From positions 1 to 64,000 of the IMG/VR virus record IMGVR_UViG_3300010413_000022: a stretch of DNA of 64,000 bases, one strand, 5' to 3'. Shown piece after piece: positions 57,863 to 62,557 of this stretch. Origin of the DNA: a virus. Below the pieces are notes generated by a model, which saw nothing but the letters and a program-made list of their open reading frames with translations, was not told the DNA's origin and did no database searches. Numbering within the stretch: the first letter of the stretch is position 1; every line of letters starts with the position of its first letter. A program made the translations under genes and the position numbers.

Positions 57863-58306
57863 TTAATTAATAGAATCATATTTTATTGTTATTACTGTTT
57901 TTGGTATATCATCAGTGTATTGTTTACGGGCAATTAAACTGGATATTACACTGTCATCTTTCCAGTATATTTTGTTAAGAGCATCTTTGACAAACTTAAC
58001 CAAATTATCCAAGTCTGGTTTTGATGTATGCAGTGCCGGGGCAGATGCTTTAAGTTTACTTTTATTTTTTCCGGTACCGAAGTGGCTTTTAGGTCTTGGC
58101 ATATAAAATATAAACCTTACCCTTATAGCTTCATCAAATGGCTTCTTTGGTTTATGCTGGGCAATAGCTTTCCAAGCAAATGTGTTTTTGTCACTGGAAG
58201 ATGGGTCATAGTTTATGTTTTGACCAGATTTTGTTTTTACTGTCCTATGCCTTTTTAAAGCAACCGGGTCACCATATACGGCAAATTCAATTAATTTATC
58301 ATTCAT
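57863..58306 (-). CDS. rusA: RusA-like Holliday junction resolvase
   Basis: 147 residues. RusA pattern: GDPVALKRHR, IRVRFIFYMPRPK, then KPDLDNLVKFVKDALNKIYW and DDSVISSL with the catalytic Asp triad. Cleaves four-way junctions before packaging. Four-base overlap with the small gene upstream. Confidence 0.85.
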   Translation of the reverse strand: MNDKLIEFAVYGDPVALKRHRTVKTKSGQNINYDPSSSDKNTFAWKAIAQHKPKKPFDEAIRVRFIFYMPRPKSHFGTGKNKSKLKASAPALHTSKPDLDNLVKFVKDALNKIYWKDDSVISSLIARKQYTDDIPKTVITIKYDSIN

Positions 58307-58468: not shown

Positions 58469-58948
58469 CTAGTGTTTATTTGGAACATATTGCTCTAAGT
58501 TATACCTTTCAATATCTGCTAAATGACACCAAAGCTTTTCTTTAGTGCCGGGTATTATTACAGGTCTATGCTTATCAAAAGCCTTCCTGTCAATTCCAGT
58601 CATTTTAATCATATCAGTGTACGTGTACAGCTTAATACTTTTGTCGAAACTTAAGAACTTAGCTACAGTAGGGCTTGGATACTCACAATTTTTAATAACG
58701 CTGTTTACAGCATCAATAAACCTATTGTCAGTAAAACCTTCCTCTTTAATCATATCAAGCAACACATCATAAAATTCAGGGGTAAGTGCTGGAAATGCCT
58801 TTTTTATCTTGGCGGTTGCTTCAACTACACCTTTAGCTGTAAGCTTATCATTATAAACTGAAAGCTTATAGCTGTCATCAATCCTTTGTAAAGTGTTTTG
58901 ATACAACCCCGGCAAGCTGCTCGACTGTAGTTCCTTCTTTTTTTCCAT
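58469..58948 (-). CDS. Replication-associated protein, putative
   Basis: 159-160 residues from ATG 58948 (MEKKKELQSSSLPGL), whose leader AGCAGCAACAAC recurs in the window. The middle (KIKKAFPALTPEFYDVLLDM) and the end (WCHLADIERYNLEQYVPN) are helical. Resembles replisome-organiser C-terminal domains found after DUF-type initiators. The upstream gene overlaps it by 71 nt. Confidence 0.5.
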   Translation of the reverse strand: MEKKKELQSSSLPGLYQNTLQRIDDSYKLSVYNDKLTAKGVVEATAKIKKAFPALTPEFYDVLLDMIKEEGFTDNRFIDAVNSVIKNCEYPSPTVAKFLSFDKSIKLYTYTDMIKMTGIDRKAFDKHRPVIIPGTKEKLWCHLADIERYNLEQYVPNKH

Positions 58949-60155
58949 GTTGTTGCTGCTTTCTGCCCTTTCTGATATTGGCAATTATTTCATTAAATTT
59001 AGTATTAATATTTGAAATACTAAGATTATCAAATACCCAAGTATGCTTATACTCAAGTTGATCCAATAAATATTTCCAAGCTTCAAGTATTTCGTCATCT
59101 GTAGGCTTTGCATCTTTACCGTTTCGCTCCTTGATAACGAAAATTATTTTAGACTTTATGTTGGTCAATTGTTTTCCATCTACAGCTTGGTAATAATAAC
59201 TATCTGATTTTTGTTCTTTATAATACTCCTCAAACACTAAGCGCATCTTGTGGGTCAAAGTGGTAATTTGTGGAGTTTTTTTATTTTTTGGTTTTTCTTC
59301 CTCTTGCTGTTCATCCAGAGAAAGTGAAAACAAAGGCGGTGATTCGCCAGAATTATCGTCAGGTACGTTAGTACCTAATGAATTTTCTACTTCTGTATCT
59401 GCTTCTACCTCTACTTCTACTTCTTTATATAGTTGTAGTTTGCTAATGCTTTGCTTGTGCTTTGCTTTTAAATCACTATTCAAAGCCTCAATAATAGGTT
59501 TGTAATTATTATTAATATCAGGTTGTAAATCGCTAATATACTGGTATATAAAATCCAAACATTCAATATTGTATGATTCTAAATGCCCCGGATATTTATG
59601 TTTTGGTTCATATATATGCTTTGATAATGCTTGTCCTAAGCTTTGCTCATGCTTTAAAGCTTGCTTTGAAAACACTTGTAGTAAGGTTGTAAGCTCATAT
59701 GGAATTCTAGTACTATATCTTCTAGCTATTGATACTTTTGTTACTCCAATTTTAACAAATAATTCTTTATCATTATAAACTAACAATATATATAACTGCT
59801 CGCCTTTCTTTCTATCAGTATCTTTCCATTTAGAATTCAATCCTCCTTTAGCTCCACTTAACGACCTAGTATTAGATATATCTTGCATAACTTCAAATTG
59901 CTCATCAAGAAATTCAATACTTATAAAACCATCTGATTGCAATTTTATAATATCACTATCAATCAAATCGTCAATATTATTTGTGTTATTTTTAAATCTC
60001 AAACACAGCTTATCATAGGTAATATCTCCTTTTTTTAGCCAGTAAAAAGAACATATATTAGCAAAAACGCCTTGACTTTCCATAGAAAGCATAGTAATAT
60101 CACCAGTAAGCCATTCAGAAACATAGAATTTAAAAAATGGTAACTCTTTAGCCAT
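58878..60155 (-). CDS. Replication initiator-like protein with inserted GIY-YIG-like nuclease domain
   Basis: 425 residues. The first 110 residues (FYVSEWLTGDITMLSMESQG, EFLDEQFEVM, GAKGGLNSKW) match the winged-helix replication/DUF4373-Lin1244 type. Residues 119-205 instead look like a GIY-YIG/T5orf172 domain: LYILLVYN, FVKIGVTK, ARRYSTRIPYE, then E170 and KYPGHLES. The rest (260-425) is again replication-type: an Asp/Glu-rich linker and a helical end. Two known pieces around a nuclease suggests a homing domain inserted into the gene. Confidence 0.7.
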   Translation of the reverse strand: MAKELPFFKFYVSEWLTGDITMLSMESQGVFANICSFYWLKKGDITYDKLCLRFKNNTNNIDDLIDSDIIKLQSDGFISIEFLDEQFEVMQDISNTRSLSGAKGGLNSKWKDTDRKKGEQLYILLVYNDKELFVKIGVTKVSIARRYSTRIPYELTTLLQVFSKQALKHEQSLGQALSKHIYEPKHKYPGHLESYNIECLDFIYQYISDLQPDINNNYKPIIEALNSDLKAKHKQSISKLQLYKEVEVEVEADTEVENSLGTNVPDDNSGESPPLFSLSLDEQQEEEKPKNKKTPQITTLTHKMRLVFEEYYKEQKSDSYYYQAVDGKQLTNIKSKIIFVIKERNGKDAKPTDDEILEAWKYLLDQLEYKHTWVFDNLSISNINTKFNEIIANIRKGRKQQQHGKKEGTTVEQLAGVVSKHFTKD

Positions 60156-60600
60156 AATGTTCTTTTTTATGGTGCTTTTTACAAAGGGTTACACCGTTAT
60201 CAACATCTAGTCTTAACTCTGGATAATCACAAAAAGGCTTTATGTGGTGCGCTTGAATCTTCTTAGTAGTGCCGCAAACAACACATTTAAAGTTATCTCT
60301 CGAAAACACAGCGAACTTCCATAATTTATATTCTGTGCTATTCCTTACCCTTTTATTATCACTGGTAATACCATCTTGCCAGTTCCAATGTTTTTCCTTT
60401 GCGTTATGCTGAGTATGTAATAATTCAGCTTTCATAACAGCAAAGCAAACATTTAAAACCAGCTCATCTGTCTCAGGGTTCTCATCCTTTACATAGGTAA
60501 AAACATGCTTCATTAACCTTCCAGCAACATCATCCGGGAGGGCTTTAAACATTGCCGCCCAGCTAGTATACATAATAAATGATTTCTTGTTTTCAGCCAT
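60148..60600 (-). CDS. DUF6291-type replication protein fused to HNH nuclease domain
   Basis: 150 residues from ATG 60600 (an in-frame TTG at 60618 would overlap the terminator). N-terminal KKSFIMYTSWAAMFKALPDD and GRLMKHVFTYVKDENPETDE match DUF6291, a phage replication module. The usual C-terminal half is replaced from about residue 100 by an HNH (McrA-type) domain: FKCVVCGTTKKIQAHHIKPF ... NGVTLCKKHHKKEH. Zinc and catalytic His residues are intact. Overlaps the next gene by 8 nt. Confidence 0.8.
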   Translation of the reverse strand: MAENKKSFIMYTSWAAMFKALPDDVAGRLMKHVFTYVKDENPETDELVLNVCFAVMKAELLHTQHNAKEKHWNWQDGITSDNKRVRNSTEYKLWKFAVFSRDNFKCVVCGTTKKIQAHHIKPFCDYPELRLDVDNGVTLCKKHHKKEHYG

Positions 60601-60616: not shown

Positions 60617-60649
60617 AAAAAAGGGTAGAGTTTAAAGCTCTAACCCTTT
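60617..60649 (-). terminator. Intrinsic terminator after the exonuclease gene
   Basis: Minus strand AAAGGGTTAGAG / CTCTACCCTTT stem with one bulge, ~7-nt loop, six T. The stop of the 60632 gene is in the loop. Confidence 0.75.
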
Positions 60650-61345
60650 AGGTTGTTTGTATTCCAGATAATCCAATAAATTCTCATTAGCGCAAAAGTT
60701 TATAAACCTGTTGCACCAACCGATAATATCGTTCCACATCTCAGGATATGGGTAATATTCCCATTCCCGATGTATAATAATAGTTTTACCAGCATTTGGT
60801 CCACGCTTTGGCTGTTGGTACTGAAAATGATTATACTTAAAAACTTTAGCCTCTGTAGCTGCAAGATATAGCTTCCATTGTAAAGACCTCTCAAAATCAT
60901 CAAGCTTAGGCTCTTTATCACTGGTCTTATGGTCTGTTACACTTACACCAAGCATTTGGTCTACTCGCATTCTCATTATAACCTCATACCCTTGAATATT
61001 GAGTACAAGTAATAAAGGTATTTCATTTACAGCCCGGCGGTGAGTATCATAATACTGCATTACCGGGGCAAGCTCCTCTCTGGTGAATTCAAAAACATCA
61101 GGCAGTATATTTCCTTTGTTTTTAACCTCAACCCTATAGACACCCTCCATTTCATCATAGTAGGGTTCATATCCCTTTTCAAGAAGTTCATGTATAGCAG
61201 TACCATAATTTGCTTTTACGCCGTATTCATCGAGGCCTTTGATATTATAAACAACCATATCTTTTGTGAACCAGCCGCCGTACTCCTCATCTATAAACTT
61301 TCTGAAAAGCTCTAATTTACTTGGAGAAAAACTAATTGTCTCCAT
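60632..61345 (-). CDS. PD-(D/E)XK exonuclease, RecB/Cas4-like
   Basis: 237 residues. Motifs: H in NYGTAIHELLEKG, then RMRVDQMLGVSVTDHKTS (D ... D-H-K) and LQWKLYLAATEA (the Q-x-x-x-Y helix). This is the RecB-family nuclease core that pairs with Sak4-type annealing proteins in phages. Sits 3 nt downstream of that gene. Confidence 0.8.
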   Translation of the reverse strand: METISFSPSKLELFRKFIDEEYGGWFTKDMVVYNIKGLDEYGVKANYGTAIHELLEKGYEPYYDEMEGVYRVEVKNKGNILPDVFEFTREELAPVMQYYDTHRRAVNEIPLLLVLNIQGYEVIMRMRVDQMLGVSVTDHKTSDKEPKLDDFERSLQWKLYLAATEAKVFKYNHFQYQQPKRGPNAGKTIIIHREWEYYPYPEMWNDIIGWCNRFINFCANENLLDYLEYKQPKGLEL

Positions 61346-61348
61346 ACA

Positions 61349-62557
61349 CTAAATTTTACCTGCTTTGTCATCTAAATTTTCATCTCCACCAAACAGGGTA
61401 GATTCAGCCGTATCTTCTTTTTTTGTTTCAGGCTTTTTATCTTCCGGCTTATTTTTGCTGTCAGCATCATTCTTTTTAGCCTCATTTGAATCTTCTGGGG
61501 CTGGATGGTTACTTACTACCTTTTTAGCTTCCTTGTCGTAAGAATAGCCTAATTTTGCCATCTGAGCATTGATAGCTATTTTCATCCCGGCTGCATACTT
61601 TTTAGGCTGTTTTACAGCAAACTCCAAAACAACATCCATTCCAATAGTGCTGTCAACATTTCCTGTAAGCTCATTAAACAATTTGTAAAACCTGTCATCA
61701 AGCATCTTGTCAATTTGAACCCGGTAAGTCTGGCTTAAGTTTTCATTGTCAATTTCATCTTTAAGAATCATTAACTCATCAACCGTGTTGCATTGGTTGA
61801 TAAATTCACGGTATTTCTCAACTGCCTTCTGTGCCTCTACCATTTCCTCAGACAAAGAGTTCATTTTATCCTTACAACGCTGGATAAGGTCGCCTGTAAA
61901 GTTTTCAAAGTTAGGCTCAGAGTAGTGAGGTATAAGTTGCTTGTCAAACTCAGCACTGTTTTTTCCCTCGTGCATGTCAGTAGGGTTAAAGTCAATTACT
62001 CGCTTGTCATTCTCCATGTAAAGAAAACCAACCAAATCGGCAGCACCTTTAAGAATGTCGTAACTACCACCTGTAACCTTTGGTTTTTTCTTGTTATATC
62101 CACCTTCCTCAACATCTGCATCGTGGGCAATGAAAATAACATCAACTTTCTTAAGCCTCATTTGGTTAACAAACTGGTTAAAAACATTCTTCATTGCACC
62201 GTATCCGGACAAGCCTAAAGAACCGTCTTTTTTAGCGTTCTTGGCATCCTGCTTGATAACACTGGCAGCAACGTAGTTATCTAGCATTGTGCCAACGGTG
62301 TCAATAATAAGGGTTTTTACTCCTTCTGCTTCTATACCTCCATTCATGTAGAAGTCTACAGCATCCTCCCAGCTTTCAACCCTTGCAGCTCTACCACGCT
62401 TAACAGAACGTTGTATACCACCATCAAAGTCAAGTAAGAAAGCATTTGGAGACCTAAATGCTAAACTTGTTTTACCAATTCCGGGTATCCCAAAAATTAC
62501 CATAAAAATACTTTCAACCTGTAAAGGCTGGTCTGCATCAATAATTTGTAATGCCAT
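61349..62557 (-). CDS. Sak4-like RecA-fold ATPase (recombination)
   Basis: 402 residues. Walker A GIPGIGKT (23-30), Walker B KTLIIDTVGTM, and VDVIFIAHDADVEEGG with the sensor His/Asp of AAA_24/Sak4 proteins. The C-terminal part is a charged linker. Sak4-type proteins are the phage single-strand annealing ATPases, with a nuclease partner next door. Its promoter is at 62595-62626. Confidence 0.8.
   Translation of the reverse strand: MALQIIDADQPLQVESIFMVIFGIPGIGKTSLAFRSPNAFLLDFDGGIQRSVKRGRAARVESWEDAVDFYMNGGIEAEGVKTLIIDTVGTMLDNYVAASVIKQDAKNAKKDGSLGLSGYGAMKNVFNQFVNQMRLKKVDVIFIAHDADVEEGGYNKKKPKVTGGSYDILKGAADLVGFLYMENDKRVIDFNPTDMHEGKNSAEFDKQLIPHYSEPNFENFTGDLIQRCKDKMNSLSEEMVEAQKAVEKYREFINQCNTVDELMILKDEIDNENLSQTYRVQIDKMLDDRFYKLFNELTGNVDSTIGMDVVLEFAVKQPKKYAAGMKIAINAQMAKLGYSYDKEAKKVVSNHPAPEDSNEAKKNDADSKNKPEDKKPETKKEDTAESTLFGGDENLDDKAGKI

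What the first reader, a model, noticed from the sequence alone, without database searches (positions are those of the whole stretch)
58878..60600. Two adjacent replication-type proteins, each carrying a homing-type nuclease domain
The DUF6291-type gene has its C-terminal half replaced by an HNH domain, and the neighbouring initiator-like gene contains a GIY-YIG-like domain in the linker where related proteins have only low-complexity sequence. Both nuclease types belong to families used by mobile elements. Two independent in-frame captures in one replication module suggest either repeated homing into this locus or nicking functions recruited for origin processing.
Basis: partly seen in the sequence, partly recalled or inferred. 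Interest (0 to 1): 0.7.

Follow-up and report, generated by a model that had tools for sequence, protein, structure and literature searches.

The report
Nucleases built into phage replication starters
In this phage, the protein that probably starts DNA replication carries a DNA-cutting domain in its middle, and its neighbour joins part of another replication starter to a second DNA cutter; related phages repeat both designs, which may let a phage attack or overwrite the replication origins of rivals.

Summary
Observation confirmed. Gene A (60148-60600, -) is a DUF6291 domain ending in an HNH nuclease. Gene B (58878-60155, -) is a winged-helix, initiator-type protein with a GIY-YIG domain in its linker. 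Neither fusion is private to this phage.

GIY-in-linker was found in 8 distinct proteins from two initiator families. Their GIY domains form one clade (99/99) apart from 55 stand-alone or homing-type domains. The hosts do not follow that clade (AU p 0.029), so the domain moves between linkers. Catalytic residues are invariant. The insert (369 bp here) always follows a basic AG..GG/SA motif and precedes in-gene tandem repeats: 118 of 156 initiator genes have such repeats, against 12 of 252 other ORFs. Here the repeats are three 11-bp AGCAAAGC units, unique in the window. Pseudomonas phage P27 shows the same layout with HNH.

DUF6291-HNH recurs in Arctus_1 and L319 (probably L342); L220 has the mirror image, B-domain-HNH. 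Each sits beside a complete initiator of a different family.

Best reading: homing-derived nucleases exploiting initiator/origin modules. GIY: in-frame homing at an in-gene origin. Gene A: an Odn-like nuclease against foreign origins. Closest known: ICP1 Odn. No activity was tested.

The parts
60148..60600 (-). Gene A: DUF6291-HNH chimera, 150 aa; stop overlaps the start of gene B by 8 nt
60421..60582 (-). DUF6291 domain of gene A (aa 7-60)
   Evidence: Pfam E 5.8e-12; model helices, pLDDT above 90
60151..60399 (-). HNH module of gene A (aa 68-150)
   Evidence: Pfam HNH_2/HNH over cut-off; 51-54% identical to Arctus_1 and L319
58878..60155 (-). Gene B: replication-initiator-type protein with embedded GIY-YIG domain, 425 aa
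59838..60155 (-). N-terminal winged-helix-like domain of gene B (aa 1-106), ending in the SGAKGGL motif
   Evidence: phrog_29280; DnaD N-domain Z 5.3, ORC chain B Z 5.9
59469..59837 (-). In-frame insert, 369 bp (123 codons); borders inferred from empty genes, approximate
   Evidence: comparison with L018 and L017
59529..59804 (-). GIY-YIG core (aa 118-209) with conserved Y, KxG, R, E
59439..59466 (-). Three 11-bp iteron-like repeats AGCAAAGC, directly after the insert; candidate in-gene origin element
   Evidence: one match, expected 0 in 100 shuffles
59385..59424 (-). 6-bp tandem array (EVEVEV linker)
   Evidence: TRF
58938..59273 (-). C-terminal domain of gene B (aa 295-406)
   Evidence: shared with L005 and L051 proteins
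58469..58948 (-). Gene C, overlapping the 3' end of gene B; orthologue follows the GIY-bearing initiator of L016
   Evidence: 49% over 98 aa

Best explanation
Gene B is the phage's replication initiator: a winged-helix N-domain, a linker whose DNA carries origin-like iterons, and a C-domain. A homing-type GIY-YIG nuclease sits in frame in that linker, at the upstream edge of the iterons. Because initiator and nuclease are one protein, the initiator's own DNA binding would bring the nuclease to initiator/origin segments of co-infecting phages. Alleles without the insert would be cut, and recombination (a Sak4-type annealase lies just upstream) would copy the GIY-bearing segment into them; the insert protects its own allele by splitting the target. 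Gene A is a separate nuclease of the Odn type: the N-domain of an initiator family this phage does not itself appear to use, joined to HNH, which would be directed to origins of phages that do use it. Shown here: anatomy, recurrence, one GIY clade in two host families, position between basic motif and repeats, conserved catalytic residues, different-family pairing. Inferred: DNA binding, cleavage, homing, the in-gene origin.
For: GIY clade 99/99 across 4 B-type and 4 DUF6291-type hosts, against 55 other domains. On the B-type N-domain tree the inserted genes are not one clade (starred branches force 2 changes, 0% of bootstraps with 1; AU p 0.029). In 8 of 8 the GIY follows an AG..GG/SA motif and a tandem array begins shortly after the GIY ends. 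Arrays (TRF score at least 50): 118 of 156 initiator CDSs, 12 of 252 other ORFs, 14 of 156 with linker codons shuffled. 3x11-bp iterons unique in window; AGCAAA pairs at 11-bp spacing in 8 of 76 B-type genes, 0 of 253 control ORFs. Catalytic Y, K, G, R, E identical in 8 of 8 and 55 of 55. Inserted proteins are about 100 aa longer, with sequence after the insert kept. Independent parallel: Pseudomonas phage P27 has HNH in the initiator linker; in phage D14C, which lacks it, 441 bp downstream are 100% identical, identity resuming at the in-gene repeat array. Sak4 annealase E 9.5e-42 at 61349-62557. Gene A: DUF6291-HNH in own, Arctus_1 and L319 beside B-, B- and Lin1244-type initiators; L220 bears B-domain-HNH beside a DUF6291 initiator. 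Precedent: Odn cuts a satellite origin through a captured RepA_N domain (PMC8263062: abstract, passages, part 1 of the Discussion).
Against: No cleavage, binding or homing was measured. Nearly all GIY-bearing genes come from metagenomic contigs; no closely related inserted/empty pair was found for the GIY, so borders rest on empties only about 50% identical in the N-domain. Domain swapping at the linker could also mix GIY and N-domains (L103 has a DUF6291 N-domain with a B-type C-domain). The P27/D14C difference covers the end of the N-domain too, so it is a replacement tract rather than a clean insert. DUF6291 had no convincing fold match, so its DNA binding rests on context. The own iteron array is short and scores only 44-45 in TRF. 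The different-family pairing rests on 4 complete cases, 3 of which share the DUF6291-HNH type, and could be a relic of initiator replacement.
Confidence: 0.48

Rival explanations
1. Both nucleases are domesticated origin-directed weapons (Odn-like) with no homing: the phage keeps them because they destroy origins of rival phages or satellites, and the GIY-initiator spares its own origin through spacing or sequence.
For: Initiator DNA-binding domains fused to nucleases, as in Odn (PMC8263062). Gene A lacks the initiator C-domain and has a domain of another initiator family than its neighbour in 4 of 4 complete cases. Catalytic residues conserved although the GIY domains share only 33-45% with the own one.
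Against: Gene B keeps the whole initiator, unlike Odn; a nuclease tied to the phage's only recognised initiator risks self-cutting. Only one gene of each kind was found in the window. No target satellite was looked for.
Confidence: 0.25
2. The GIY domain is an integral nickase that starts or resolves the phage's own replication at the in-gene origin.
Against: Most initiators of both families lack it: 72 of 76 and 76 of 80 distinct proteins. The host tree shows gain or loss. Relatives are mostly other phage nucleases.
Confidence: 0.1
3. The GIY spreads only by recombination between initiator genes (swapping of N-domains at the conserved AG..GG linker motif); the nuclease activity is incidental or decaying.
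For: L103 combines a DUF6291 N-domain with a B-type C-domain; the linker motif is common in both families: 109 of 146 uninserted proteins.
Against: Catalytic residues invariant 8 of 8; a decaying domain should lose them.
Confidence: 0.14

Closest known systems
Odn, origin-directed nuclease of Vibrio phage ICP1 (gp88, YP_004251029)
   Same: Initiator-type DNA-binding domain fused to a GIY-YIG-superfamily (T5orf172) nuclease of homing origin; the target there is a replication origin with iterons (PMC8263062).
   Different: Odn uses RepA_N, is a two-domain protein without initiator C-domain and is not the phage's initiator. Its nuclease domain scores only 6-11 bits with the profiles of this GIY clade. 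Gene A resembles Odn's layout more, but with DUF6291 and HNH.
Coliphage T5orf172/RepA_N proteins (Inny, Muut, Mt1B1_P17) and ICP1 Gp5
   Same: Putative further Odn-type chimeras; RepA_N domains vary between phages (PMC10448857, section 24 part 1 read).
   Different: Different DNA-binding family; no nuclease embedded in the linker of a complete initiator is described in the parts read.
Free-standing T5orf172/GIY-YIG homing-endonuclease genes of phages
   Same: Same nuclease superfamily; the two relatives scanned here carry DUF723/DUF4379/CapR zinc modules, as most T5orf172 HEGs do (PMC10448857 passages).
   Different: Those are separate genes; here one clade is confined, in this sample, to initiator linkers.
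phrog_5810/phrog_5718-type initiators of Pseudomonas phages (P27 against JBD44/D14C)
   Same: Nuclease (HNH) inside the initiator linker, upstream of in-gene repeats, with another HNH gene overlapping the initiator start by 8 nt.
   Different: Different initiator family and nuclease; present in public records and PHROGs, where the annotation seen does not remark on the insertion.

Membership tests
GIY-YIG nuclease superfamily (gene B, aa 113-215) | Catalytic residues: GIY tyrosine, YIG-strand glycine, helix arginine, glutamate | tested here: met
   Invariant in 8 of 8 embedded and 55 of 55 other domains; mapping to I-TevI positions is recalled
GIY-YIG nuclease superfamily (gene B, aa 113-215) | GIY-YIG fold | tested here: inconclusive
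   pLDDT about 89-97 over 120-200; UvrC GIY domain 1yd4 Z 4.1, rmsd 3.5, 71 aligned: modest Z
T5orf172 (PF10544) | Score over Pfam cut-off | tested here: inconclusive
   Gene B: none at E<=1. Over cut-off in the relatives L103 and L098 (21.3 and 21.1 against 20), below it in L101 and L113, none in L016
Homing endonuclease gene | Sporadic insert with empty alleles in relatives | tested here: met
   4 of 76 and 4 of 80 distinct proteins (sampling partly GIY-directed); empties L017 and L018
Homing endonuclease gene | Cuts the empty allele and is copied into it | not testable with these tools
   -
HNH nuclease (gene A) | Profile match over cut-off and HNH residues present | tested here: met
   PF13391 29.3 against 21, PF01844 25.1 against 21.4; residues by inspection
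Odn-type origin-directed nuclease | RepA_N DNA-binding domain | tested here: not met
   No RepA_N match in Pfam for either gene at E<=1
Odn-type origin-directed nuclease | Initiator-family N-domain fused to nuclease, not the resident initiator's family | tested here: met
   Gene A and 3 more complete cases; DNA binding itself inferred
Odn-type origin-directed nuclease | Cleaves a rival origin | not testable with these tools
   -
Phage replication initiator (gene B) | Family annotated as initiator or primosomal; next to helicase, loader or primase genes in relatives | tested here: met
   L342 B-type: phrog_9327 primosomal 1.2e-14, phrog_270 replication initiation 1.4e-8; DnaB-type gene near L097, primase after L003 and L004. 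Own next gene C is unidentified
Lambda O-like in-gene origin | Iterons inside the initiator gene | tested here: met
   118 of 156 against 12 of 252; origin function not shown; the lambda O comparison is recalled

The most novel reading that the evidence does not exclude
Phage replication initiators with in-gene origins are a standing niche for nuclease domains. A dedicated GIY-YIG lineage lives in frame between the DNA-binding domain and the iterons, making an initiator that starts its own genome and cuts rivals that lack the insert; beside it, nucleases carrying the DNA-binding domain of foreign initiator families attack other origins. Phages would thus fight over, and overwrite, each other's origins with modified initiators, and this would drive the swapping of initiator modules.
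Probability: 0.35. Interest if true: 0.85.

Novelty: new variant of a known kind. Interest (0 to 1): 0.66.

Why it matters
Odn was presented as the first captured DNA-binding domain fused to a nuclease against its source genome (PMC8263062, Discussion). The present data suggest that the same principle recurs in phages (the hosts known here are mostly Bacteroidota), with other initiator domains and two nuclease types, and that a nuclease can live inside a complete initiator. If true, it would help explain why phage initiator modules are exchanged so often, and it gives a testable system: inserted and empty alleles, a defined basic motif and defined iterons.

Tried and rejected
Chance or assembly artefact: rejected; the two fusions recur in independent records. 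Recent capture from a stand-alone GIY gene of this phage: no other GIY or HNH of these types in the window ORFs and the tree is against it. Foldseek on the whole gene B model: no match under E 0.001. Fold search on gene A: no Z of 5 or more; its HNH half is poorly modelled (pLDDT about 38-52). Sequence profiles of GIY and N-domain against PDB: no match at E<=1 for GIY, two poor ones (E 0.73, 0.76) for the N-domain. GIY in 395 genomes of one bacterial phylum: 0 (DUF6291 itself in only 3 of 395, so this says little); DUF6291-HNH profile: 2 of 395 matched, open frames of 232 and 285 aa, the match ending before the HNH core. DUF6291 tree: short rows and long branches, used only as a hint. HNH tree of chimeras: unresolved, one clade neither shown nor rejected (AU p 0.25). 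First GIY scan with two sequences found nothing. Plasmid search: no match. DNA search of window 1-24000 for near phages: no match. Paper searches without a description of this architecture: (none or irrelevant); some searches gave the Odn/T5orf172 papers or unrelated ones. Only open-licence PMC papers were searched.

Sampling limits: of the 8 GIY-bearing initiators, the own one apart, 2 (L016, L058) came from a GIY-blind scan (2 of the 80 loci kept of 328) and 5 from a GIY-directed scan, so 4 of 76 and 4 of 80 are not frequencies. The GIY-blind DUF6291 scan gave GIY in 0 of the 80 loci kept of 483. Loci were not added to the GIY tree. L096 and L100 duplicate L016 and L058; L099 duplicates L098. 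In one search, 80 of 421 loci were kept.

Full report
WHAT IS THERE. The window is part of a 69,702-bp IMG/VR virus record. On the minus strand, after a Sak4-type annealase (61349-62557) and a PD-(D/E)XK nuclease (60632-61345), lie gene A (60148-60600), gene B (58878-60155) and gene C (58469-58948), then a 61-aa ORF and RusA (57863-58306). Gene A joins DUF6291 to HNH; gene B joins an initiator-type N-domain, a GIY-YIG domain, an acidic repeat linker and a C-domain. A and B overlap by 8 nt.

GENE B IS AN INITIATOR-TYPE PROTEIN. Its N-domain family (phrog_29280) includes members that also match 'primosomal protein' and 'replication initiation protein' families (L342). Relatives of B or of the DUF6291 type are followed by primase, DnaB-type or IstB-type genes. 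The AlphaFold2 model shows a winged-helix-like N-domain: best matches are the origin recognition complex (Z 5.9), the DnaD N-domain (Z 5.3) and transcription regulators; these Z values are modest.

THE GIY DOMAIN IS AN INSERT, AND A RECURRENT ONE. A GIY-blind scan of viral contigs with the N-domain kept 80 loci; two of them, L016 and L058, have the same domain at the same place. A scan with the GIY domain (72 loci) added L097 (B-type) and, unexpectedly, four distinct DUF6291-type proteins: L098 (= L099), L101, L103, L113. In all 8 the GIY follows a basic AG..GG/SA motif, a motif also found in 109 of 146 uninserted proteins. The inserted proteins are 317-425 aa, against mostly 180-290 for the rest, so the domain is added, not substituted.

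ONE GIY LINEAGE, SEVERAL HOSTS. In a tree of 63 domains the 8 embedded ones form a clade with 99/99 support apart from 55 others; inside it the DUF6291-type L103 groups with the B-type rows at 92/75. On the N-domain tree of 69 B-type proteins the four inserted ones are not one clade: starred branches force two changes, and the AU test rejects one clade at p 0.029. The domain therefore moved between linkers, or was lost often. Catalytic Y, K, G, R and E are identical in all 8 and all 55.

IT SITS BESIDE ORIGIN-LIKE REPEATS. Tandem arrays with TRF score of at least 50 occur in 118 of 156 distinct initiator CDSs, against 12 of 252 other ORFs of similar size in the same loci and 14 of 156 when the linker codons are shuffled; those scoring at least 60 lie mostly around aa 94-160. 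Among the latter, 26 of 82 have periods that are not multiples of three, which points to the DNA. In the own gene, three 11-bp AGCAAAGC units lie at 59439-59466; the pattern occurs once in the window and in 0 of 100 shuffles. AGCAAA pairs at 11-bp spacing occur in 8 of 76 B-type genes and 0 of 253 control ORFs. In the empty genes L017 and L018 these repeats directly follow the motif; in the own gene 369 bp (123 codons) separate them. In the 8 inserted genes an array starts about 7-21 codons after the GIY ends; in 4 of the 8 (own, L058, L097, L103) its score is only 43-49.

AN INDEPENDENT PARALLEL. The initiator of Pseudomonas phage P27 (phrog_5810, 2-359) holds an HNH at about aa 117-192. Phages JBD44 and D14C lack it: D14C is 100% identical over the 441 bp downstream, starting at the in-gene repeat array, and 91.9% over the 972 bp upstream; the differing tract also covers the end of the N-domain. 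In P27 and JBD44 another HNH gene overlaps the initiator start by 8 nt.

GENE A AND ITS KIN. DUF6291-HNH also occurs in Leeuwenhoekiella phage Arctus_1 (44%) and in L319 (155 aa); L342 has the HNH part and junction peptide, its N-end cut off. The complete initiator next to it is B-type with GIY (own), B-type (Arctus_1, L342) or Lin1244-type (L319, Pfam 2.4e-7, followed by DnaB). L220 is the mirror image: a B-type N-domain fused to HNH (HNH_5 2.3e-12) overlapping a complete DUF6291 initiator. So in 4 of 4 complete cases the nuclease carries a domain of another initiator family than its neighbour; 3 of these share the DUF6291-HNH type. This is what a nuclease aimed at foreign origins should look like, and also what an initiator replacement would leave behind.

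COMPARISON WITH THE KNOWN. Odn of ICP1 fuses a RepA_N domain, captured from a satellite's initiator, to a T5orf172 nuclease, needs the iterons and cuts the satellite origin (PMC8263062: abstract, passages and part 1 of the Discussion read). Similar coliphage chimeras are predicted (PMC10448857: passages and section 24 part 1). Odn's nuclease domain is only distantly related to this clade (6-11 bits), and RepA_N is absent here. Gene B differs in keeping the complete initiator. I found no description of nucleases embedded in initiator linkers in searches, which cover open-licence PMC papers only.

VERDICT. I rate it a new variant of a known kind: homing-derived nucleases joined to initiator domains. 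The most likely working is homing at an in-gene origin for the GIY, and an Odn-like attack on foreign origins for gene A. No activity is shown.

Noticed in passing
L017 3596-4000, L030 2755-3144, L042 3694-4008, L091 3664-4008, L335 2704-3183; L398 56-802: Small HNH genes of other HNH types directly precede and mostly overlap (8-14 nt) initiator genes in several phages, including Pseudomonas phage JBD44.
   Followed up: partly
L033/L034/L036 4001-5070: A short (155 aa) B-type protein is followed with 4-nt overlap by an HNH gene; it looks like an initiator truncated by an HNH.
   Followed up: no
L103 3713-4666: DUF6291 N-domain joined to a B-type C-domain, with GIY between: initiator modules recombine at the linker.
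   Followed up: partly
window 59616-59655: The GIY-coding DNA itself carries a weak 11-bp array (3.6 copies, 74% matches) whose unit is nearly a rotation of the iteron unit.
   Followed up: partly
L005 7609-8619; L051 4001-4828: The C-domain of gene B also occurs with a different N-domain in a human-gut phage (L005), so C-domains are swapped too.
   Followed up: no
window 58469-58948: Gene C follows both own and L016 GIY-initiators and has no family match worth the name; position suggests a helicase-loading role (guess).
   Followed up: partly
L400 1501-2331 (Bordetella phage IFTN4): Initiator-like genes of Bordetella phages are annotated 'HNH endonuclease' in some records and 'replication protein' in others.
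   Followed up: no
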